Of a DNA stretch of 64,000 nucleotides, positions 3,578 through 41,457 are shown piece after piece. The notes under the pieces were generated by a model. It did not search any database and was not told the DNA's origin. It was given only the letters and a program-made list of their open reading frames with translations. The first letter of the stretch is position 1. Every line of letters begins with the position of its first letter. The position numbers and the translations under genes are program-made. The stretch comes from Methanocella paludicola SANAE (GTDB lineage Archaea > Halobacteriota > Methanocellia > Methanocellales > Methanocellaceae), in NCBI RefSeq assembly GCF_000011005.1, contig NC_013665.1:2333501-2397500 (forward strand), in the 5' to 3' direction.

Positions 3578-5350
3578 ATGGTCACGAGGGATAATAAATT
3601 ACGGGTGTTCTGGCGTAGCCGGGTTAAGCCTTTCTGGAGAGAATTTGAGATCCCCGTGATGATCGCCATCGGTGTTGCCGCATTCGCCATGGGCGTGATA
3701 GGCTTTGGCGATTATTATAACACGATAAACCAGCCCCGGCCATTCCTGGACTGGGTCTTTCTCACTATTGTGATGTTCCGTGGCATCTTTCTCCAGGCCG
3801 GGCCCCTGCCGCTCGAGCTGGAGATCGCCCGGTGGGCGGCCATATTCATCGTGCTCTATGCGGCCATCCGGGTCCTGACGGCCTTATTTTATGAGCAGGC
3901 GCACATCCTGATCCTCAGGTGGCTAACCTCGGACCACGTGATCATCTGTGGCCTCGGGGAAAGAAGCGGTGGCCTCATCAGCGAGTTTTACAGGATGGGG
4001 TACAGTGTCGCGGTCATCGATAAGAACCTGAGCAGGGAGATGGCCCAGAAATGTAAAGATAAGGGTGCTGTCATCCTGAATGGCGATCCATCCGATGAGG
4101 AGCTCATCCGCCGGGCCCGCATAGATCGCGCTAAGTATATCATTGCTGCCATGGACGATGACAGCGCGAACGCGGCAGTAGCGCTGGCCGCCCGGGAGCT
4201 CGTTAAAGGAAAAGAGGGCCGGCCCCTCACCGGTTATGTCCACATCGTGGATAGGGCGCTGTGTAATCTCCTCAAGGCCGATTACGAGTTCAACCGCAAG
4301 GCAAGCGACCGGCTCCGCCTCGAATTTTTCAATTCATACGACGATGGGGCGCGGGCACTGGTCAGGGAGTACCGGCCCTTCGGCGAAGGCTGCACAAGCA
4401 TAGCCATCGTCGGCCTGGGAAAGTTCGGCGAAAGCCTGGCGATCAGAGTCGCCTCCGAGTGGCTTCTTTACGAAGGCCGTAATGGAAGGCGATTAAGCGT
4501 TATAGTGGTGGACTCCAGGGCCACGAAGACGATATCGAACCTATTAATGCATTATCCGTTCCTTGATAGCGCCTGCGATTTTATGGCCTACGACATGGAG
4601 CCTGTTCACTCGGGAGTGCTTTCCCAAAGAAACCCGGGCATCGTATACGTTTGTCAGGACAATGACAGTGAAACGCTCTCGACTGCCATAGCCCTGCGAA
4701 AGGCGCTGTCCGGCACGACGGTGATCGCCTGCCTCAACCGTAGTTCAGGCCTGGCCAGGCTCGTGGACCGCATCGGAAAGGAACAGGGCCTCCAGGGCCT
4801 GGGATTTTTCAGCCAGCTGGAGGCGGCCTCCCGGCCGGAGATCCTGATGGGAGGCACTCGCGAGGCCATCGCGACGGCCATCCACGAGGAGTACGTACGG
4901 TCTCAGGCGAGCCAGGGCTTCACGCCCGAGAAGAACCCCTCGATGGTCCCATGGGAAAAGCTTCCCGAGACCCTCAGGGAATCGAACCGGCACAACGCGG
5001 ACCACGTGCTCGTAAAGCTCGCCGCCATGGGCTGCGGCATCGAGCTACTGACCGATCCGGCAGCGCTCGACTTCAGGTTCTCCGGCGAGGAAATTGAAAA
5101 GATGGCAGTCATCGAGCATGACCGCTGGTGCGACGAGCGCCTGGGGCAGGGGTGGAAATATGCGCCCGGGCCCAAGGACATCGAAAAGAAGACGAGCCCC
5201 TACCTAGTGCACTGGGATAAGCTGAGCGAGGAGATCCGGGAGTATGACCGGAATGTCATCCGGGGGTTGCCTGTGGCCCTCGCCCGGGCGGGGTTCCAGA
5301 TCTACCGGATCCGTAAGCCGGCAATCACTGACCCCATTAGAGCTATTTAG
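3578..5350 (+). CDS. Membrane-anchored TrkA-N/RCK protein with tandem RyR domains
   Basis: A 590-residue protein. Two hydrophobic segments (about 25-43 and 84-105) flank a hydrophobic loop placed like a channel pore helix but without a recognisable TVGYG filter. Two Rossmann NAD-binding TrkA-N units follow (GLGERSGG near 125 and VGLGKFGES near 278). The C-terminus carries two ryanodine-receptor-type (RyR) units, about 433-490 and 508-578; the second has EHDRWCDERLGQGWKY and the LSEEIREYDRN pattern. RCK domains gate ion channels by ligand, and RyR domains occur in predicted nucleotide-sensing conflict systems. The stop overlaps the end of the opposing TIR-NACHT gene by 8 bp, so an associated role is plausible. 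Ion selectivity and ligand are unknown. Confidence 0.75.
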   Translation: MVTRDNKLRVFWRSRVKPFWREFEIPVMIAIGVAAFAMGVIGFGDYYNTINQPRPFLDWVFLTIVMFRGIFLQAGPLPLELEIARWAAIFIVLYAAIRVLTALFYEQAHILILRWLTSDHVIICGLGERSGGLISEFYRMGYSVAVIDKNLSREMAQKCKDKGAVILNGDPSDEELIRRARIDRAKYIIAAMDDDSANAAVALAARELVKGKEGRPLTGYVHIVDRALCNLLKADYEFNRKASDRLRLEFFNSYDDGARALVREYRPFGEGCTSIAIVGLGKFGESLAIRVASEWLLYEGRNGRRLSVIVVDSRATKTISNLLMHYPFLDSACDFMAYDMEPVHSGVLSQRNPGIVYVCQDNDSETLSTAIALRKALSGTTVIACLNRSSGLARLVDRIGKEQGLQGLGFFSQLEAASRPEILMGGTREAIATAIHEEYVRSQASQGFTPEKNPSMVPWEKLPETLRESNRHNADHVLVKLAAMGCGIELLTDPAALDFRFSGEEIEKMAVIEHDRWCDERLGQGWKYAPGPKDIEKKTSPYLVHWDKLSEEIREYDRNVIRGLPVALARAGFQIYRIRKPAITDPIRAI

Positions 5351-8300
5351 CCCCCTTTTTCGCGCCGGAGAGCTCAAGCTCTTTGACCGGGGCTTTACGG
5401 TCTTCGAGGGCATGAAGGACGCCGCTCATTTGTTCCAGGCACCGTATAAGATCGGGCTTCAGGGCCATATCCTTACAATAGGCCCGTTGCTCCTTCAGCG
5501 CCGTGAGCGCCCCCTCGAAGTCGCCCTTCGCGGATAACGCCATAGCTTTCTCGCCCAGGCACTCCTGCAGGCCGTACTTATAGCCGATCTCCCGGAACGC
5601 CTTCTCTGCCTCGCCATGCAGCGCAAGGGCATCGTCAACGGCGCCCCCCATACGTAAAATAATGGCCTGGTTATTCAGGGACACGGCAAGGTCACGCTTA
5701 TGGCCGATCTCCCGGCAGATACGCTCCTGCTCCCGGTGGACTGCCAGAGCGCCGTCCAGGTCTCCCCGGAGGCGAAGTATGGCGGCCTGCTGGCCCATGC
5801 AAAACTGGATGCCAAAAGGATTGTCGATATCACGGCATATCTGCATAGCTTCCCCGACGATACGCCCGGCTGCATCGAGGTCGCCCTTTTGGCGTAAACA
5901 TAATGACTGCTCATAGAGAACGTCCCACAGGTACCATTTATAATTCAGCTCCCTGCACAACATCTCGGCCTTTTTAAGCGCTTCAAGTGCCCTGTCGTAC
6001 TCTCCACGCCATATGTCTATCGTCGATATGCCTATCATCGATTCACATAAAAGCTTCTTATCGTTCGTTTTTCTGGACAGGGCCTCAACCTCTTTAAAGA
6101 GCTTGACTGCGGCATCCAGTTCGCCTAAGGCTTTCATGACAATGCCCTGATTCGACAGGGATTCCTTAACCCCGTCGATGTTACCGATACTCCGGCAGAT
6201 GCCCTCCTGCTCCTTCAGCAGGGCCATGCCTGCGCCGACGTTGCCCTTCACGCGCTGGATCGTGCTCTGCTCGTTCAGGCAGGCGCAGAGGCCCTCGTAA
6301 TTGTCCGTCTCCCGGCAGATACGCTCCTGCTCCCGGAGTATCGACAGGGCCTCGTCGAACTCGTTGCGCGTCCAGAGGTATTCCGCCCGGGACTGCAGGG
6401 CTTGCTGCAGGCAGCCCAGGTCACCGCTTTCACGGCACTTACGCTCCAGCTCTTCCAGCAGGGGGACCGCGCGCTCATGGTCGGACATCGTCACGAGGAG
6501 CGATACCTGCTTACTAAGGACCTCCCTTAGCTCGTCGTGCCTGCCGGCACTGCGATACCGGTCGGCCAGGTGCTCGTAAATCCTGCAGGATTCCGCGACC
6601 CTGAACGAGCTCATCAGCATACTCGCCGCGACCTCAAGGCGCCTTTCATCATAGCCCGGCGGGTTCTCGATCATCCCCTTTAACATATCGGTCATGTACA
6701 GGCCATCGTGCTCTTCGGCGACGGCCCACCACCGCATGACGTTGAACCTGTCCAGCGACCATTCGCGGCTGACGAAATCCATGTTCCTCAGGACTTCTTC
6801 GGCCTCATAGGCCATATCGGCCAGGCACAGGTGCATGGGCAGATATTTCATCATCGGGCGGTTCCAGGCAGGCTTCCCTTTTTTGTAATGCTCCAGCAAA
6901 TATGTCCCCAGTATCCTGTGGCCCTCGCCGGCACTCACAAAATACCGGTCGTCCTTCTTTTCGTCCGTGAGCCATTCCATGACCGAGGCATGGAACGGCC
7001 GGACGCCGTCACTGTTCGCGATAAAGAGCGATCCCAGGGATAGCTTGAGCTCGCGCTCTTCGTGCACGTTCCACTTGAATATTGCCGCGATCGATCGCAG
7101 GCTCAGGGGCTCGAACGAGGCGGCCATGATCTCGAGCACGGGCCGGATGCGGGCTTCCCACGCCCTGATGTCGGGGAACTGGCGCTCGAAGAACCGAAGG
7201 TAAATTCCCCCGAGCCCCTTCGGGAAGTCGTCGATATTATCAAGCGATAGCCGCCCGTATTTTATTTCTTTTACGACCCATTCGGCATAGATAAAAAGCC
7301 CGTTACACTTAGCTGCGACCTTTTTTATGGTATCGGCCGGCACGCCCTCGCCCAACTCCCGTGCAAGAAACTCTTCTACGTCATCCTCGTTCCGGACATC
7401 GCCCGTTTCGATGGCGAACTGCCTGTACGCCTGCAGCGCCCCCGCGACTTCCGGCTCCGGCCGGCTCGTGACGATGAGCCGGAGCCATTGCGGCGTGCGC
7501 TCCAGCTCTGACGCGATAAATCCGGCGAGGTCGTTCTTCCCGTCGACCGTCGCCTCGTCGAGCGCGTCGATCACGATGACCATAGCCTGCCGTGGCCGGG
7601 GGAAGTCACGGGACAGGGGCTGCACGATGAGCTTATCGAAGAGCGCGCGGGCGTTCAATCCGGAGAGGTCCTCCAGGCTCATCCTCGCAAGGCGCCGCTC
7701 ATATTCGGGAAGCTGTGTGCTGAGCTGGTACGCGAGCGACATGATGCACCTTCGTGGATCGATCTTCTGCACGTTATCGTGGCGGCAGAAGTGGAACGCT
7801 GCGACCTCCCGCCAGTTGGCGCAAAGCCACGCTGATATAGAGGTCTTGCCCACGCCGGGGCGTCCGGTGATCCAGAACACGCGCTGGGCATCACTATCGT
7901 TAAGCCATTCTTCGATGGCTTCCGTGACCCAGGTGCGCCCGATGAAACGATGAAGGTTGTATTTGATCTCCGAATCGAAGGACAGCGGCTTCAGGGCGCC
8001 GGCCAGCCTTGCCTGGGCGCCTGCGACGCTCTCCGTCCCGTGCTCGATCACCTCCAGAAGAGCCTTTAGCTTCTCCTCGTACGGCCCGGGGCTCCGGTCG
8101 ACAGGGAGGCAGTCCTGCATGTCGAGCCACTGGATCCGGCAGATGCTCAGCGGAGGCTCGCACCAGGACAGCATGACCGGTATGACCTTCATGTTCAGCT
8201 GGATGGCCCTCGCCAGCTCGTTAAGGCAAAAGCCGTCCGGGCGGCGGACGGAGTGGGGCGTCATTAGAAGTATGAGCTGCCCATCCGGGGACTCGGAGGC

Positions 8301-8495
8301 CCACGCCAGCCCGTCCTCGATATACTGTTCCCAGTCCGCGCCGGGCTTGATGCGGTCGGCGTCGAACCATACGTCGTACCTCCGGGCGATAAGGTCGTTT
8401 TTCAGGCGGAGGGCGAAAGATACGTGCTCGTCACGGCCGTAGCTCAGGAAGATGCGTTTTTTCGGGGATATGCCCTTGATCCGTTCCTCCGTCAT
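5343..8495 (-). CDS. TIR-NACHT-TPR STAND protein (candidate NADase immune sensor)
   Basis: About 1050 residues. N-terminal TIR domain (about 10-150): RIFLSYGRDEH, DVWFDADRI and GFCLNELARA, whose Glu (about residue 93) sits where TIR NADases have their catalytic Glu. NACHT/STAND ATPase next: Walker A GRPGVGKT near 211-218 and Walker B VIVIDALDEA near 306-315. A winged-helix-like middle precedes TPR-like repeats with a 40-residue period from about 640 to 1040 (repeated EQERICRE units). ATG at 8495 is chosen over the upstream TTG at 8510. It lies 53 bp downstream of the M43 peptidase gene on the same strand and overlaps the RyR gene tail to tail. STAND sensors with TIR effectors are known antiphage and regulated-death proteins; that role here is inferred. 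Confidence 0.85.
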   Translation of the reverse strand: MTEERIKGISPKKRIFLSYGRDEHVSFALRLKNDLIARRYDVWFDADRIKPGADWEQYIEDGLAWASESPDGQLILLMTPHSVRRPDGFCLNELARAIQLNMKVIPVMLSWCEPPLSICRIQWLDMQDCLPVDRSPGPYEEKLKALLEVIEHGTESVAGAQARLAGALKPLSFDSEIKYNLHRFIGRTWVTEAIEEWLNDSDAQRVFWITGRPGVGKTSISAWLCANWREVAAFHFCRHDNVQKIDPRRCIMSLAYQLSTQLPEYERRLARMSLEDLSGLNARALFDKLIVQPLSRDFPRPRQAMVIVIDALDEATVDGKNDLAGFIASELERTPQWLRLIVTSRPEPEVAGALQAYRQFAIETGDVRNEDDVEEFLARELGEGVPADTIKKVAAKCNGLFIYAEWVVKEIKYGRLSLDNIDDFPKGLGGIYLRFFERQFPDIRAWEARIRPVLEIMAASFEPLSLRSIAAIFKWNVHEERELKLSLGSLFIANSDGVRPFHASVMEWLTDEKKDDRYFVSAGEGHRILGTYLLEHYKKGKPAWNRPMMKYLPMHLCLADMAYEAEEVLRNMDFVSREWSLDRFNVMRWWAVAEEHDGLYMTDMLKGMIENPPGYDERRLEVAASMLMSSFRVAESCRIYEHLADRYRSAGRHDELREVLSKQVSLLVTMSDHERAVPLLEELERKCRESGDLGCLQQALQSRAEYLWTRNEFDEALSILREQERICRETDNYEGLCACLNEQSTIQRVKGNVGAGMALLKEQEGICRSIGNIDGVKESLSNQGIVMKALGELDAAVKLFKEVEALSRKTNDKKLLCESMIGISTIDIWRGEYDRALEALKKAEMLCRELNYKWYLWDVLYEQSLCLRQKGDLDAAGRIVGEAMQICRDIDNPFGIQFCMGQQAAILRLRGDLDGALAVHREQERICREIGHKRDLAVSLNNQAIILRMGGAVDDALALHGEAEKAFREIGYKYGLQECLGEKAMALSAKGDFEGALTALKEQRAYCKDMALKPDLIRCLEQMSGVLHALEDRKAPVKELELSGAKKGAK

Positions 8496-8548
8496 ATGGA
8501 TAATGAACAATTGGCGATTCGGGGCTTAAACTCATCGTTCATAAAAAA

Positions 8549-10873
8549 CTACTCCGGAGTCCTTACGACGAACCTCTGGCCTCCGACGGTCTGATATGAC
8601 CCGGAAACAAGTTCCTTCTGGACAATATCGAACGTTAATACACTATGGCGTAAATCCTGGCCCGGCTGGGGAGTAAATGTGAACGATATCGTATAGTACA
8701 TTGCGAGATCGACCGGAAGCTCGATCCATGCGCCGGAATGCAGTATGGTAAATTTGCCGTCGTCGACGATAGTTAGGCCGTCGCTTTTACCGTCATGATC
8801 CTTCCAGTTCTGGAAGATTTCCTTATCGATGTCAAGGCCCACGGTGCCCCATTTAAAGATGGATGCGGGAAAGAGCCCGGATAATGCGATCTGCTCGTTG
8901 ACCGGCGCTATGAAAAATAGCTTGATGGACTCCGGAGGCTTCTTTTTAAATATTATTTTCTCCGGTTTTTTGTGTATCTTTGGCAAGTGTTTTTTAAATA
9001 CCTTGTTAATGGTCACATGCCCGTGCCATATGCCATTGACTTTTTCGGCGATCGTGATATTCCGCATTGCGATGTTATTGTTGTTCCTCAGATTATCCCA
9101 GAGGCTCGAGCCTTCGGGCGTCGTCATGCCGTACGGGTGAACTGTTTCCGTCTCGATGCGCGCGAGCAGGCAGAAATGGGTCCGGTCTGCGCCCATGGCA
9201 CTGTAATCCTGCGGGTTCGGAGGATACCAGTTAAAAGGTATGATAATGGAATGGCCCGGTTCTATAACGCCGATAGGCTTCCCGTCCACGGGCTCGATCC
9301 TGCCGCCCATCAAGGGCGAGGTGACCGATCCGTCCCACGGGGCAGGCCAGCCCAGTCCCGTCGATGCCTTAGCCCAGTAAAGCTTGACAACGCCCCCCTT
9401 CGTCGGCATACAGCCGCGGTTTCGAACGCGGACGTACACGATATTCAACTGCCCATGCACGGGGTTTTCATGGTCCAGGACCATCGGGCGGCCGTCGTCG
9501 GCAAAATATTCTCCGGCGTTGACCCAGATATCCTCGCTCACGTGCAGGAGCTTTGACCTTGAATCCGGCTCATCCCCGATGTCATCCGGTGAATGGCTTA
9601 TGCTGGGGTCCGCGACAGGGCCTGCGCCGGGCGGAGGATATGCGCCGAGCGAGTCCAGGATGGTACCCCTCGTACCTCGCAGCGTCGCCTCCATTGCCTT
9701 AGCCTGGCCGGCGGTGAACATTACGGCACAGCAGTCCTGTGTGGAGTCCATGTAGTTCATGAACATGTCCCCGGTCTCCGGGCTCCCCCCGGGGCAGGAC
9801 CGGTAGGGATATGCGCTGCAGGCCCCGTTCGCCGACTCGGTACACGAGACCCAGTATTCAGGGTCCCGGTATTTCAGGCTGATGGGGCATCGATAGTCGC
9901 CAGCATTAAGGTCACAATTGATACTCGTGAAAAATCTGCACTTCCCATTGATGGACTGGCCGTTGCAGCTTGTGGCCGGGTCGAAGCCGTTAAAAGGGCA
10001 ATAGCTATTCTGGTATTTTTGATTGGGCGTATCGTCCACAAAACTTTCCGCGGCATCGGAATCCTTACAGGGGTCATCATTGTCCAGGAGGTCGCCCGCG
10101 ACATGGTACAGGTTGAGCCAGTGGCCGACCTCGTGCACCAGCCTCCGGCCGCCATTGGTCCGGGGCCGGACCGTGCCGGGCTTGTTACCAAAACTACGGT
10201 AATCCATCACGATGCCATCGCATTCCCGGGGCCACCCGGGAAATGAGCCATAGCCGTAGATCTCAAACCACACGGTCCGGCCGTCGTCCGTATACGGGTA
10301 GGGATTCAGCTTACATACCCATATGTTCAGGTAACTCTCGGGCGGCCATGGGTCATGGCCGCCTGTGGCCGCGTGCTTAACGGTATCCGTATGAGGGTCG
10401 AACTGAGGGTGGTGCGGGTCGTGCGACCAGAAATCGGGAGGCGTGAATCCATCGACGGACGTCTCCGTTCTCGTGACGCCCGTGAGGCCGGACTTCGACG
10501 ACCGGCATTCCGGGTCTCTTTCCGCCAGCCGGAACTCGATGAGAGTATTTGCTGCCAGGTTAAAATAGTCGGGCACGAGGTTCCTCACGTACTGCAGGTC
10601 CGCGTTCAGCTTGTGGAAATCCCGGTTCAAGATCTCGATCTGCTTCCGGATCTGGTCATCCGAAATGTACTGTTCTTCATGGCCTTTTTGATATACCACG
10701 TGGACGACGACGGGTATTTTCATAGTCGTGATGTTCTGGTAACTGGAAAGCTTGGCATAGCTCTTCGCGAAAATATTAATGAGCTGCCTGTTTATCACGT
10801 AGGGCTTATAGATATCCAAAAGCTGCTTATGCATTTTACACGTTATACAGGATGCAAAGTCAAGTCCGGCCAT
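8549..10873 (-). CDS. M43-type (pappalysin/cytophagalysin) zinc metallopeptidase
   Basis: A 774-residue protein. The catalytic domain spans about residues 50-420 and contains the extended zinc motif HEVGHWLNLYH (about 247-257) and a Met-turn segment MFMNYMDSTQD (about 370-380), typical of family M43. Several Cys pairs lie between them. The C-terminal ~340 residues are beta-rich, with a CARDB/Ig-like stretch around VRVRNRGCMPTKGG and NNNIAMRN. No signal peptide is visible (it starts MAGLDFASCITCKMH), unusual for M43 enzymes, which are mostly secreted. The ribosome site GGGGG lies 7 nt before the ATG. It is the first gene of a probable operon with the TIR-NACHT gene. Confidence 0.85.
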   Translation of the reverse strand: MAGLDFASCITCKMHKQLLDIYKPYVINRQLINIFAKSYAKLSSYQNITTMKIPVVVHVVYQKGHEEQYISDDQIRKQIEILNRDFHKLNADLQYVRNLVPDYFNLAANTLIEFRLAERDPECRSSKSGLTGVTRTETSVDGFTPPDFWSHDPHHPQFDPHTDTVKHAATGGHDPWPPESYLNIWVCKLNPYPYTDDGRTVWFEIYGYGSFPGWPRECDGIVMDYRSFGNKPGTVRPRTNGGRRLVHEVGHWLNLYHVAGDLLDNDDPCKDSDAAESFVDDTPNQKYQNSYCPFNGFDPATSCNGQSINGKCRFFTSINCDLNAGDYRCPISLKYRDPEYWVSCTESANGACSAYPYRSCPGGSPETGDMFMNYMDSTQDCCAVMFTAGQAKAMEATLRGTRGTILDSLGAYPPPGAGPVADPSISHSPDDIGDEPDSRSKLLHVSEDIWVNAGEYFADDGRPMVLDHENPVHGQLNIVYVRVRNRGCMPTKGGVVKLYWAKASTGLGWPAPWDGSVTSPLMGGRIEPVDGKPIGVIEPGHSIIIPFNWYPPNPQDYSAMGADRTHFCLLARIETETVHPYGMTTPEGSSLWDNLRNNNNIAMRNITIAEKVNGIWHGHVTINKVFKKHLPKIHKKPEKIIFKKKPPESIKLFFIAPVNEQIALSGLFPASIFKWGTVGLDIDKEIFQNWKDHDGKSDGLTIVDDGKFTILHSGAWIELPVDLAMYYTISFTFTPQPGQDLRHSVLTFDIVQKELVSGSYQTVGGQRFVVRTPE

Positions 10874-11093: not shown

Positions 11094-11411
11094 ATGAGTA
11101 TAACTTGCCCACCGATGGATGGTGCCGCATTAGGCTTGCCTAAAGATGTTGCGGTTGGTATCTTTGACTTTTTAGTAGATAACGATAAGTCGCTGGATGA
11201 GGTTATAGAGGCATTGGCCCTATGCCGAAAGGTGAAAGAGCTTGAGACGTCTGAGCCGCTGGTATATAATGCGCTGATGGATATGCTGAATAAATATTTA
11301 GGGTATGTCTCGCTGGCTGTTTCGCCGGCCTCTAAGAAAGGTAGCATTGTAGGTCCAGCCGCGAAGACTAAAATTAATAAAAAGGTAAGCCGGGCAAAGA
11401 AATCTAAATAG
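11094..11411 (+). CDS. Small protein before a PqqD/radical SAM enzyme; candidate RiPP precursor
   Basis: 105 residues, no family recognised. An acidic-hydrophobic helical first two thirds (FDFLVDNDKSLDEVIEALALCRKV) is followed by a small-residue and Lys-rich tail (SPASKKGSIVGPAAKTKINKK). A clear ribosome site GGTGA precedes the ATG. The stop lies about 14 bp before the probable start of a PqqD/SPASM radical SAM protein on the same strand, the usual position of a RiPP precursor. The helical part would be the leader and the tail the modified or protein-binding part. It could equally be an unrelated small regulator. Function is unproven. Confidence 0.6.
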   Translation: MSITCPPMDGAALGLPKDVAVGIFDFLVDNDKSLDEVIEALALCRKVKELETSEPLVYNALMDMLNKYLGYVSLAVSPASKKGSIVGPAAKTKINKKVSRAKKSK

Positions 11412-11424
11412 ACGGACGGGGAGC

Positions 11425-12813
11425 ATTGCGTCACATAAAAAAGAAGTCGACTGCAATAAGCCGTTAGTCTATCCTTTTGTTACGATCCGGCCGGAGGGCA
11501 CTGGAGCCCTCCTTTTTAACTCTTTTTCGGGCATTGAGATCGAGCTAAGTCAGGATGAAACGTTAATCGCTTCATTATGTGACGGCCGTCATACGATAGA
11601 TCAAATAACCAGGGCCGTGATCAAGCATTCCGGGAAGGACGAGGATGACTCCAGAGCCTGTGTCCAGGAGACAATGGATAAGCTTTCCCGGGCGCTGGCC
11701 ATTTCGCCTCCCGGCCATAAGCTTCTATCCTATATCCTGGCCAGGCAGAACCGGGAATTTAATAAAATGGTACCGGCCCTTTCGGCGCCGAGGCAGGTCT
11801 TCTGGGAAGTGACCCATGCCTGCAACCTCCGCTGCCTCCACTGTGTAACATCGTCCGGCAGTAAGGATAATGACGAGCTGGATTCGCAGGAGGCTTTTGC
11901 GCTCATCGACAGGCTGGCAGACATGAAGGTCTTTTATCTAATAATAACGGGCGGCGAGCCGTTCCTTCGCCCGGATATCCTCGAATTGCTCCGCCATATC
12001 TCGACGAAGAACATGATGGTAAAAGTCGATACGAACGGCACGCTGATCGACGATGATGCCGTCGATGAATTATTGTCGTTGAGATTATCCAGCATACAGG
12101 TGAGCATCGACGGTATAGGCGGATCTCATGACCGCTTCAGGGGTAAAAAAGGCACGTATAAAGCAGCCTGCGGCACGATAGAACGTCTCATAAAAAAAGG
12201 TATACCTACTAATATCACGACGACGGTTACGCGCCAGAATTTGAGCGGCCTGAACGCCGTCATCGACCTCGCGGTGAGGCTCCATTGCAATGGTATTACC
12301 ATAAATCCCTTCGTGCCGGTCGGAAGGGGGCTTGATAATCAGGGGCTAAAGCTCGATGGCGAGGATTATTATCGCCTGTATCAAACGATACATACGCGGG
12401 CCCGGGAGCTTGCCGGTATAATAACTATATCCACCGACATCGGATTTACTTTCCTTTTTGAGCCCTCATTGCCGGAGATGAGGCCGGCAAAATATATGGG
12501 ATGCGGCGTGGGCTATGACACGCTGAGCATTGGGGCCGGAGGCACGGTATATCCATGCCCTTTTTTACATGAGTATCCGCTGGGGAATATCAGGGATGTG
12601 TCTTTAGAGGAAATATGGGACGACGCCAGCTTCCTTAAGTCTCTGCGGCCATTACATAAAAGAGATATGGGCGGGGAGTGCAAAAACTGTAAACATGCAT
12701 TAAGAAAGTGCACGGGCGGGTGCAGGGCTCGGGCTTACCACGAATATGGCGATCTAAAAGCGCCTGACCCGGCATGCATTTTTTCAAAAATAAAAAGCGG
12801 GGACCAACGTTAG
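11425..12813 (+). CDS. PqqD-like domain fused to radical SAM/SPASM peptide-modifying enzyme
   Basis: Reading frame 1 is open from 11389. Its first 80 codons encode a PqqD-like peptide-binding domain (YPFVTIRPEGTGALLFN, LCDGRHTIDQI). The radical SAM core follows, with CNLRCLHC (C-x3-C-x2-C), TGGEPFLRPD and QVSIDG, then a C-terminal SPASM domain with about ten Cys (CGVGYDTLSIGAGGTVYPCPF, CKNC, CTGGC). No ATG, GTG or TTG occurs in frame before GTG 11617, which would remove most of PqqD. I annotate from ATT 11425, next to GGGGAG; a frameshift from TTG 11426 is the alternative. It probably modifies the small protein encoded just upstream. The 3' end overlaps the opposing peptidase gene by 4 bp. 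Confidence 0.75.
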   Translation: MASHKKEVDCNKPLVYPFVTIRPEGTGALLFNSFSGIEIELSQDETLIASLCDGRHTIDQITRAVIKHSGKDEDDSRACVQETMDKLSRALAISPPGHKLLSYILARQNREFNKMVPALSAPRQVFWEVTHACNLRCLHCVTSSGSKDNDELDSQEAFALIDRLADMKVFYLIITGGEPFLRPDILELLRHISTKNMMVKVDTNGTLIDDDAVDELLSLRLSSIQVSIDGIGGSHDRFRGKKGTYKAACGTIERLIKKGIPTNITTTVTRQNLSGLNAVIDLAVRLHCNGITINPFVPVGRGLDNQGLKLDGEDYYRLYQTIHTRARELAGIITISTDIGFTFLFEPSLPEMRPAKYMGCGVGYDTLSIGAGGTVYPCPFLHEYPLGNIRDVSLEEIWDDASFLKSLRPLHKRDMGGECKNCKHALRKCTGGCRARAYHEYGDLKAPDPACIFSKIKSGDQR

Positions 12814-13685
12814 ATCTTGAACTCCCCGGTATCGACCCACTTCGAGTCGATGAGCGTCCACCAGTCCTGGGCCAGACCCTTGAGCACGTACTCGTATGGC
12901 AGCCACCCATAGCCTTTATCGCCCCACCCGGTGCCCCAGGAGTTCCGTATCAGGAAGGCGCCGGTCGTCTGCTTGCCGTCGGCCTCGTTCTTAATTTTCA
13001 TGCGGTCATCGTGGCCGACCGCCATGATGGCGTGACCGCCCTCGATCCTCTCGCCCTTCGACGGGTACGGGATCTTGCCGTCCTTATCGGCCTGCGAGAT
13101 GGAGCTGTACACGGTAAAGCCGAACATTGCCGGAAGGCTCGCCGCCAGGCTGGCCTTGATCTGCGAGAGCACGTCCTTTGCCGCCTTGTTGGCCGGGTCC
13201 AGGCGGACGTACTTGAGTGACTGGTAGTTCTGGGCGAACGCATAACAGAACGTAGGCGGCTCGTCGTCGAACTTCTTCACATCATAGGGCCAGTACTCTT
13301 CCGGAGGGGCCCCGAAAAGCGCCAGCGCGCCCATGGTGGTGCGTAAATACGCTCCGGTATCGCCCGACTCATGCATGAGCGTACGAGTCGCCTTATACAG
13401 GAACAGCCGGGAGGCATCGATGTGCTTCCCGAACGCCTTGCGCTCGAAGTATTCGACCATGCCCACGCCGGCGTTCGCCGTGCACGAGCCCAGTTGGCCC
13501 TGGTCCTCGATGGGCGGGCACCATTTTCTCAGGTCTACTGCATCTGGCAGCGTGCTTTCTTCAGCCTTAAGGACGCCCGCCTTGCTATAGATCGGCTTTA
13601 CCTTGTCGGTGGTCAGGGTATAATCCCTGAAGTCAGGATAGTCCGGACGCCACCCCGTCCAGTATTTACCGTTGATCGGCCTCAT
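12810..13685 (-). CDS. Papain-like cysteine peptidase (family C1A)
   Basis: A 291-residue protein. The catalytic Cys lies in EDQGQLGSCTANAG (the Q of the oxyanion hole precedes it), the His in EGGHAIMAVGHDD, and the Asn in IRNSWGTGWGDKGYGWLPY. The order and spacing fit family C1A. No signal peptide and no long inhibitory propeptide: residues 1-45 resemble the short head of archaeal/bacterial C1A proteins, so it looks cytoplasmic. It converges with the radical SAM gene (4-bp overlap). A leader-peptidase role for the neighbouring candidate RiPP is only an inference; general proteolysis is equally possible. Confidence 0.88.
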   Translation of the reverse strand: MRPINGKYWTGWRPDYPDFRDYTLTTDKVKPIYSKAGVLKAEESTLPDAVDLRKWCPPIEDQGQLGSCTANAGVGMVEYFERKAFGKHIDASRLFLYKATRTLMHESGDTGAYLRTTMGALALFGAPPEEYWPYDVKKFDDEPPTFCYAFAQNYQSLKYVRLDPANKAAKDVLSQIKASLAASLPAMFGFTVYSSISQADKDGKIPYPSKGERIEGGHAIMAVGHDDRMKIKNEADGKQTTGAFLIRNSWGTGWGDKGYGWLPYEYVLKGLAQDWWTLIDSKWVDTGEFKI

Positions 13686-16749: not shown

Positions 16750-18030
16750 GGCAGTGTCCCGTATTTTCTGTAATTTTGGTTTTAGCCCTTGTATTCGTTA
16801 TTCTAGTCATTGCGTTCCAGGTCTATATGTTTTTTGTCTACTGCATATTCCTCGTTCACGTCCATCAGGATGTTTACGATGACTCGTAACGCGGATTGGT
16901 TGCTTGGAAATGCTCCGATGGGCCTGGTTCTTCGTTTTATGAGACTGTTCACGTTCTCCAGGGTGTTGGTCGTTCGTAGTTTTATCCATTGGTGTGGGGG
17001 AAATGCCAGGTAGTTATAGAGGCAAGGCAGGTTTTTATCGATCAGGCTGCTGGCCTTGTCAAAACCACGGGCTTCGAGATCTTCGGCCAGGTTGGCCAAA
17101 AGGTTAGGAGATTCCATGTGATCTTTCAGTAATTGGTTGATCTCGCCTCTCTGTTTCGCTGGTACGGTCTTTATCACGCTTCTTCTGAAGTGTACGTGAC
17201 ACAACTGCCAGCTGGCACCCAGAAAACACTGCTCAACAGCCTTTTTAATCCCCTTATGCCCGTCGCTGATAACCATTTTTATGCCTGTGAGCCCCCGTTT
17301 CTTGAGATCATCAAAGAACACGGTCCACCAGTCCTCATCCTCCCGGTCCATGATCCTCGAGTCAAGTATCTCCTTGTACCCATCCTGATTGACGCCCATG
17401 GCGATGAACACGGGCTTCGAGACGTACATCCCATTATCTCTCACCTTGATGTAGGTGGCATCAACGAACAAGTACGGAGTACCTCCAAGAGGCCTCGCGA
17501 GGAAATGTCTCACATCATCATCCAATTCCTCACTTATTCTGCTTACACTGCTTTTACTCACCTCAACACCAAGAGTCTGTAATACCTTCCTCATTTTCCG
17601 CGTGCTGACGCCCTGAAGATAGGATTCGCTAATGACATTCACCACCGCCTTTTCAGCCCTGCTGTACCGGTCGAACAGACAGGTCTCAAAAGGCACCTCA
17701 CGAAGCTGAGGCTTCTCCAACTCCACCTTACCATAACGAGTCACCAATCCACGAGACTTATACCCATTACGACGAGCCCTCCTTCCCTCCGCCCGCTCAT
17801 AATGCATAGCCCCGGCCTGCTCACACGCCTCTTCCTCAAGAATACTATTAAGAAGATCCCTGATAAGATTCTTCATAGCATCCGAGTCTGCCCTAATATA
17901 TTTCAACGCGTACTTCGTATCACTGTATGGCCTTGTATTCCTCATATTTTGTTCTCCAAACAATAAATTGAGAATACAGGGCTAAAAATATTAACCAAAT
18001 AAAAACAAATTACAGCAAAATAGGGACAGA
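16750..18030 (-). mobile_element. IS256-type insertion sequence with 9-bp target duplication
   Basis: A 1281-bp element bounded by direct repeats GCCATCGTG at 16741-16749 and 18031-18039. Its ends are imperfect inverted repeats: one reads GTGTCCCGTATTTTCTGTAA, the other, complemented, CTGTCCCTATTTTGCTGTAA. It carries one full-length transposase. The insertion point is proven by the uninterrupted repeat at 41058-41377, which reads straight through GCCATCGTGTCATTG. IS256-family elements typically duplicate 8-9 bp. Confidence 0.92.
16803..17945 (-). CDS. IS256/Mutator-family transposase
   Basis: 380 residues from ATG 17945 (GGAG 9 nt upstream; an upstream TTG at 17963 is less likely). It shows the Mutator DDE triad: Asp in YLFVDATYIKVR, Asp in MVISDGHKGIKKAV and Glu in TTNTLENVNSLIKRRTRP, plus the W-x-LCHVHFRR block. 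The frame is intact, so the element could still be active. It fills nearly the whole insertion sequence, with no passenger gene. Confidence 0.93.
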   Translation of the reverse strand: MRNTRPYSDTKYALKYIRADSDAMKNLIRDLLNSILEEEACEQAGAMHYERAEGRRARRNGYKSRGLVTRYGKVELEKPQLREVPFETCLFDRYSRAEKAVVNVISESYLQGVSTRKMRKVLQTLGVEVSKSSVSRISEELDDDVRHFLARPLGGTPYLFVDATYIKVRDNGMYVSKPVFIAMGVNQDGYKEILDSRIMDREDEDWWTVFFDDLKKRGLTGIKMVISDGHKGIKKAVEQCFLGASWQLCHVHFRRSVIKTVPAKQRGEINQLLKDHMESPNLLANLAEDLEARGFDKASSLIDKNLPCLYNYLAFPPHQWIKLRTTNTLENVNSLIKRRTRPIGAFPSNQSALRVIVNILMDVNEEYAVDKKHIDLERND

Positions 18031-18180
18031 GCCATCGTGTCATTGTACCCTTTGTGCCTCTTGACCCAAAAAGCATCCTCTGTGGCCTTTGTGACCTCCA
18101 TCTAAAAATAACTCTGTGGTACTCAGTGCACTTCGTGCCATTGTGGTGAAAATAGTGCCTCTGTACACTTAGTGACTTAG
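18031..18180. repeat. Right part of hairpin repeat R1
   Basis: Continues the repeat interrupted by the insertion sequence; it matches 41227-41377. Its outer part (TGCCATTGTGGTGAAAATAG) is the reverse complement of the outer part of the left half (CTATTTTCACCACAATGGCA), so the original element was a long imperfect inverted repeat. Confidence 0.85.
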
Positions 18181-18211
18181 AAACCAGGCAGTTAAGCATA
18201 ATAGCAATAAC

Positions 18212-41057: not shown

Positions 41058-41377
41058 AAGTCACTGAGCTTACAGAGCCACTATTTCCACCACAATGGCA
41101 CGGAGTTCACGAAGGCTCACAAAGCTTTTTTTATAATTTGAGGCACAGAGGTCACAAAGCCCGGTTCATTGGCGATAGGGCACAAAGGATACAATGGCAC
41201 AACGAATGAACATGCGAACACTTTTTGCCATCGTGTCATTGTCCCCTTCGTGCCTCTTAACCCAAAAAGCCTGCTCTGTGGCCTTAGTGACCCGCATATA
41301 AAAAAGACTTTGTGAAACTCCGTGCGCTTCGTGCCATTGTGGTGAAAATAGTGCCTCTGTACGCTTAGTGCCTCGAG
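41058..41377. repeat. Intact long inverted repeat R2 (uninterrupted relative of R1)
   Basis: A 320-bp non-coding element. Its left arm (ACAGAGCCACTATTTCCACC, ATGGCACGGAGTTCACGAAG) is the reverse complement of its right arm (CTTCGTGCCATTGTGGTGAAAATAG), with mismatches. Inner segments with GAGGCACAGAGGTCACAAAG pair with CTGTGGCC/CTTAGTGAC-type segments. Nearly the same sequence as R1 at 16573-16749 plus 18031-18180, same orientation. No frame of credible protein. The remaining flanks of the 531-bp gap (40927-41057 and 41378-41457) show nothing else. Confidence 0.85.
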
Positions 41378-41457
41378 CGGTAATATGCGATTGTGATAAT
41401 GATACGAAACCATTAACAGAAGATTTAATGAGTATCCGCGCTATATTTTAAGCCGAT

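What the first reader, a model, noticed from the sequence alone, without database searches (positions are those of the whole stretch)
11094..13685. Candidate RiPP locus: small protein, PqqD-radical SAM-SPASM enzyme, papain-like peptidase
Seen: a 105-aa protein about 14 bp before a PqqD-domain SPASM enzyme, with a C1A peptidase converging on its end. Known: PqqD domains bind RiPP leader peptides and SPASM enzymes modify peptides. Inference: the small protein is the substrate and the peptidase may mature it. The tail SPASKKGSIVGPAAKTKINKK has few obvious modification residues, so the product type is unclear.
Basis: partly seen in the sequence, partly recalled or inferred. Interest (0 to 1): 0.65.

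Follow-up and report, generated by a model that had tools for sequence, protein, structure and literature searches.

The report
Archaeal peptide-modifying enzyme with small partner
A methane-making archaeon carries a two-gene cassette, an unusual small protein followed by an iron-sulphur enzyme of the kind that chemically remodels peptides; related enzymes in other methanogens sit next to proteins with cysteine-proline-rich tails, which hints at what this enzyme modifies, but the neighbouring peptidase is unrelated.

Summary
The genes described are real: a 105-aa protein (11094-11411), 13 nt later a PqqD(RRE)-radical SAM-SPASM enzyme (11425-12813), and a convergent C1A peptidase (12810-13685). 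The RRE is below the Pfam cut-off by sequence, but the model shows the PqqD fold, and SuiB, SkfB, CteB and PqqE are the nearest solved structures. Small protein and enzyme share atypical base composition (GC3 0.46/0.59 against 0.78) and have no close relative in other Methanocellales, so they look like one acquired cassette. The peptidase does not belong: GC3 0.81, 53-68% identical homologues in six genomes, none beside such an enzyme. Relatives of the enzyme give indirect support: in Methanolobus, Methanosarcina, Methanoperedens and another methanogen it directly follows a protein with a Cys-Pro-repeat tail (CPPSP, CPPAP, CPAGQP, CRTGLP). M4 peptidases with the tail have the enzyme adjacent (9/9); M4 peptidases without it do not (0/9). 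Best reading: a RiPP-like enzyme-substrate pair, chemistry unknown. The RRE also lacks a canonical in-frame start codon.

The parts
11094..11411 (+). Small orphan protein P0002, 105 aa, proposed substrate of the enzyme
   Evidence: ORF; no Pfam or NCBIfam match; no homologue in 394 phylum genomes, plasmids, phages or viral contigs
11106..11120 (+). CPPMD, residues 5-9 in the disordered N-terminus: candidate modification site
   Evidence: Sequence; CPP also begins the repeats beside related enzymes. Weak: 4 CPP among 342 Cys in 61 window proteins
11142..11297 (+). Predicted three-helix region, residues 17-68: candidate leader or carrier domain
   Evidence: AlphaFold2 without homologues, pLDDT about 60 here, 51 overall; no PDB fold match
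11301..11408 (+). Disordered basic tail, residues 70-105, no Cys
11425..12813 (+). RRE-radical SAM-SPASM enzyme, 462 aa if read from ATT 11425
11479..11691 (+). PqqD-like RRE domain, residues 19-89
   Evidence: Model with b-b-b-a-a-a order; Pfam PqqD E 0.04, below cut-off; aligns with relatives' N-termini
11821..11844 (+). CX3CX2C motif (CNLRCLHC) for the radical SAM cluster
   Evidence: Invariant in the 13-sequence alignment
12502..12777 (+). SPASM region with seven Cys invariant among relatives (360, 378, 419, 422, 429, 433, 451)
11425..11443 (+). Possible starts: ATT 11425 in frame; TTG 11426 one frame off, with A_AAA_AAG heptamer 11437-11443 where a -1 slip would enter the enzyme frame
   Evidence: Direct reading; the 7-mer AAAAAAG occurs 17 times on this strand of the window, so it is not rare
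11493..11517 (+). Terminator-like hairpin plus T5 inside the RRE coding sequence; possible attenuator between the two genes
   Evidence: 7 bp stem, -15.3 kcal/mol, z -1.87; 4 such sites found in 4 kb against 4.1 in shuffles, so not above chance

Best explanation
P0002 and the enzyme form a two-gene cassette in which the RRE (PqqD-like) domain binds P0002 and the radical SAM-SPASM enzyme modifies it, as in RiPP and protein maturation systems. By analogy with relatives that follow Cys-Pro-repeat proteins, the likeliest site is Cys5 in the disordered N-terminal CPPMD stretch, with the helical middle acting as the recognised part; a Cys thioether is the likeliest chemistry. The C1A peptidase is a chance neighbour. 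Shown by sequence or model: gene order, enzyme anatomy, shared composition, the tail association in relatives. Inferred: binding, P0002 as substrate, site, chemistry, product role.
For: RRE fold and SPASM maturase anatomy. Thirteen nt between genes, no other ORF between the divergent M43 gene and the enzyme, and a convergent gene after it, so P0002 is the only adjacent candidate. Shared AT-rich composition. P0002 is absent from the three other Methanocellaceae genomes, where the best enzyme match is only E 4.9e-38. Relatives directly follow Cys-Pro-repeat proteins in Methanolobus, Methanosarcina G369, Methanoperedens L094 and G191. M4 peptidases: tail and adjacent enzyme 9/9, neither 9/9. No tandem CP-repeat protein beyond chance elsewhere in the own genome.
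Against: P0002 has no homologue and no repeats; a single CPP in a 2-Cys protein is expected in roughly 2% of cases, and the C1A neighbour has one too. No similarity of P0002 to any relative's tail. In the tree the enzyme is a long branch beside a mycofactocin MftC, outside the CPP-repeat clade. The RRE lacks a canonical start, so decay is possible. The Methanolobus cases are one lineage, not independent. No binding or activity data.
Confidence: 0.5

Rival explanations
1. The enzyme modifies another substrate encoded elsewhere, and P0002 is an unrelated orphan ORF.
For: P0002 has no homologue, weak codon bias, few Cys and no resemblance to known precursors.
Against: Adjacency, shared composition, and the relatives' habit of following their candidate substrate; no Cys-Pro-repeat protein found elsewhere in the genome.
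Confidence: 0.25
2. The cassette is decaying: the enzyme has lost its start codon and only a truncated product from GTG 11617 is made.
For: No ATG, GTG or TTG in frame before the RRE; sparse distribution; atypical composition.
Against: The whole 470-codon frame is free of stops, and all radical SAM and SPASM Cys are kept. ATT start, a -1 slip or a homopolymer sequencing error explain the start equally well.
Confidence: 0.12
3. A mycofactocin- or PQQ-like redox cofactor system: P0002 is a carrier from which a small cofactor is excised.
For: Best NCBIfam score is the mycofactocin MftC model (204 bits), and the tree neighbour L062 is an authentic MftA-MftB-MftC set.
Against: Score below the MftC cut-off of 265; P0002 lacks the mycofactocin C-terminus and matches neither MftA model; none of the other Mft genes is in the window.
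Confidence: 0.08
4. One reading: a three-gene RiPP locus with the C1A peptidase as leader protease.
For: The peptidase converges on the enzyme's 3' end with a 4-nt overlap.
Against: Opposite strand; GC3 0.81 against 0.46 and 0.59; C1A homologues in six genomes have no such enzyme within 1.5 kb.
Confidence: 0.05

Closest known systems
SuiB, SkfB and CteB: RRE-bearing radical SAM-SPASM RiPP maturases
   Same: N-terminal PqqD-like RRE fused to radical SAM and SPASM; best PDB fold matches over the full length
   Different: Only 18-24% identity; their substrates are short precursor peptides with a C-terminal core, whereas P0002 is 105 aa with its CPP at the N-terminus; no product known
Mycofactocin MftC with MftA and MftB
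   Same: Closest NCBIfam model and tree neighbour
   Different: Below cut-off; RRE fused rather than separate MftB; no MftA, no nicotinoprotein partners
Methanolobus CPP-tail M4 peptidase plus RRE-SPASM pair (found here, no name found)
   Same: RRE-SPASM enzyme directly after a protein with CPP motifs
   Different: Many CPPSP repeats on a 700-aa protease rather than one CPP on a small protein; 29-32% enzyme identity

Membership tests
Radical SAM-SPASM peptide-modifying enzymes | CX3CX2C motif and radical SAM domain | tested here: met
   Pfam E 1.7e-26; motif invariant
Radical SAM-SPASM peptide-modifying enzymes | SPASM domain with auxiliary-cluster Cys | tested here: met
   Pfam E 2e-12; seven invariant Cys
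Radical SAM-SPASM peptide-modifying enzymes | PqqD-like RRE | tested here: met
   Fold in model; sequence score below Pfam cut-off
RiPP biosynthetic locus | Conserved precursor gene linked to the enzyme | tested here: inconclusive
   P0002 is adjacent but has no homologue
RiPP biosynthetic locus | Enzyme modifies the precursor | not testable with these tools
   Needs co-expression and mass spectrometry
RiPP biosynthetic locus | Linked leader protease or exporter | tested here: not met
   C1A not linked in other genomes; no exporter adjacent. Not obligatory in all RiPP loci
Mycofactocin MftC | TIGR03962 score above 265 | tested here: not met
   204 bits
Cys-Pro-tail RRE-SPASM clade | Tandem Cys-Pro repeats in the upstream protein | tested here: not met
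   P0002 has a single CPP
Cys-Pro-tail RRE-SPASM clade | Enzyme inside the clade | tested here: inconclusive
   Long branch outside the clade in the core tree; the N-terminal profile that finds it was partly built from it

The most novel reading that the evidence does not exclude
Methanogens hold a family of RRE-SPASM enzymes that modify Cys-Pro segments in whole proteins rather than short precursor peptides: CPPSP tails of thermolysin-like peptidases in Methanolobus, Cys-Pro tails of other large proteins in Methanosarcina and Methanoperedens, and a minimal single-site substrate, P0002, in Methanocella.
Probability: 0.3. Interest if true: 0.7.

Novelty: new variant of a known kind. Interest (0 to 1): 0.42.

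Why it matters
Very few radical SAM peptide-modifying systems are known from archaea. The M. paludicola pair alone is one more orphan. The comparison gives a testable rule that I did not find described in the papers searched: in several methanogens an RRE-SPASM enzyme gene directly follows a protein with Cys-Pro-repeat segments, and peptidases lacking the tail lack the enzyme. If the tails are modified, it would be enzyme-directed modification of long protein tails, and Methanolobus species are cultivable for mass spectrometry.

Tried and rejected
Homology of P0002 to the DUF4332-like end of the Methanolobus M4 proteins: rejected (hhalign probability under 1%; pairwise scores within shuffles). 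P0002 in PDB by sequence: only designed armadillo repeats at E 0.003, read as helical-composition matches; by fold: nothing. First genome-contig scan with the enzyme: nothing. Own-genome search for tandem CP repeats: three matches against one in the control; a 141-aa ORF hit is a short simple repeat in an intergenic stretch. Programmed frameshifting: kept only as a possibility, since the 7-mer AAAAAAG is common in the window. The hairpin in the RRE coding region is not above chance for the region. Literature searches found no description of this locus or of the Methanolobus pair; subscription papers are not held.

Full report
Setting. The window is positions 2333501-2397500 of a single-contig genome of 2,957,635 bases. 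The rest of the window looks like ordinary chromosomal genes by their translations.

The enzyme has Radical_SAM and SPASM domains well above Pfam cut-offs. PqqD scores below cut-off by sequence, but a model built on an alignment of 13 sequences (mean pLDDT 78) shows three strands then three helices at residues 19-89, and the best PDB matches over the length are SuiB with and without its precursor, SkfB, CteB, PqqE and TigE. All three radical SAM Cys and the seven SPASM Cys are invariant among relatives. No NCBIfam model reaches its cut-off; mycofactocin MftC is nearest at 204 bits against 265.

Start-codon anomaly. The frame is open from before 11401, yet the first ATG, GTG or TTG in it is GTG 11617, after most of the RRE. 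The RRE aligns with relatives, so it is probably translated. Candidates are a rare ATT start at 11425, or TTG 11426 in the neighbouring frame with a -1 slip at A_AAA_AAG 11437-11443, or a one-base error in that A run. Nothing here decides between them.

Small protein. P0002 gave no match in 394 genomes of the phylum beyond itself below E 0.004, nor in plasmids, phages or viral contigs. It was not searched for separately in genome contigs. The single-sequence model is poor (pLDDT 51) but consistent: disordered 1-14, three helices 17-68, disordered basic tail 70-105. The two Cys are at 5 and 44; Cys5 lies in CPPMD.

Cassette. P0002 and the enzyme have GC 0.45 and 0.51, GC3 0.46 and 0.59, against window means of 0.58 and 0.78; C1A has 0.60 and 0.81. 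The three other genomes of the family lack P0002, and their best matches to the enzyme are E 4.9e-38, 1.3e-28 and 5.3e-21, in the range of other radical SAM proteins. I read the pair as one horizontally acquired unit. C1A homologues at 53-68% identity in six other genomes have no such enzyme within 1.5 kb.

Relatives. In each Methanolobus locus read, the enzyme gene overlaps by 4 nt the end of a 700-aa M4 peptidase whose C-terminus carries 7-9 CPPSP or CPPAP units followed by a DUF4332-like end (output was cut, but one search lists the tails). Methanosarcina G369 has CPPAP units on a protein cut by the contig end, Methanoperedens L094 a 1395-aa carboxypeptidase-regulatory-like protein with CPAGQP units overlapping the enzyme start, and G191 a 318-aa protein with LHCRTGLPDMT units. 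A search for the M4 catalytic part in 295 genomes gave nine M4 proteins with the tail, all with the enzyme beside them, and nine without the tail, none with it. All nine positives are Methanolobus, so they count as one event; the other three lineages add independence. In a second set (L166, L168, L171, L169) the enzyme follows 225-340-aa proteins without Cys repeats, so the rule is not universal.

Where the present enzyme falls. In the core tree the CPP-repeat enzymes form a clade (100/94), while the M. paludicola enzyme is a long branch beside the MftC of a deltaproteobacterial mycofactocin cluster (96/90), a join between two long branches. So the analogy to the Cys-Pro clade rests on architecture and gene order more than on close kinship; the nearest full-length relative by profile score is the G191 enzyme at 32%.

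Interpretation. I think it most likely that the RRE binds P0002 and the enzyme modifies it, probably at Cys5, and that the peptidase is a bystander. Gene order, anatomy, composition and the tail rule in relatives are shown. Binding, substrate, site and chemistry are inferred. The CPP in P0002 is weak evidence alone: four CPP among 342 Cys in 61 window proteins, one of them in C1A. P0002 shows no similarity to any relative's substrate. Confidence 0.5.

Limits. The genome contigs and whole-genome searches sample species, not metagenomes. Composition means rest on window genes only. The 9/9 against 0/9 contrast looked 1.5 kb either side of the matched part only.

Noticed in passing
L183-L191, L053-L055, L157-L165 (Methanolobus): M4 thermolysin-like peptidases with 7-9 CPPSP or CPPAP units and a DUF4332-like C-terminus, each followed with a 4-nt overlap by an RRE-SPASM enzyme; M4 proteins without the tail lack the enzyme.
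   Followed up: partly
L094:1823-6010 and 5860-7368 (Candidatus Methanoperedens): 1395-aa carboxypeptidase-regulatory-like protein with CPAGQP-type repeats overlapping an RRE-SPASM enzyme gene; the next gene looks like a DUF4157 (eCIS-core-like) protein by eye.
   Followed up: partly
L166, L168, L171, L169: RRE-SPASM enzymes directly after 225-340-aa proteins with repeated LRDRIIKDEKLLRDLSETIS-like segments, which resemble NHLP leaders by eye, and conserved ends such as PIDGIPAPELLYALDKLRF.
   Followed up: no
L052:6109-7065: 318-aa protein with tandem LHCRTGLPDMT units directly before an RRE-SPASM enzyme (G191).
   Followed up: partly
window 11493-11517: Strong terminator-like hairpin with T5 inside the RRE coding sequence, possibly an attenuator, though not above chance for the region.
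   Followed up: partly
window 5343-8510: 1055-aa protein whose N-terminus matches TIR models of defence systems weakly (PADLOC E about 1e-7), with NACHT-like and TPR parts by eye.
   Followed up: no
window 8549-10873: 774-aa M43 (pappalysin-type) metallopeptidase divergent from P0002, GC3 0.69, between the cassette and normal genes; link to the cassette not tested in other genomes.
   Followed up: no
window 17942-18199 and 41117-41413: Similar translated repeat (SVQRHYFHHNGTK...RGTKGTMTRW) in two places, one beside a transposase-like ORF (16803-17963): probably a repeat element.
   Followed up: no
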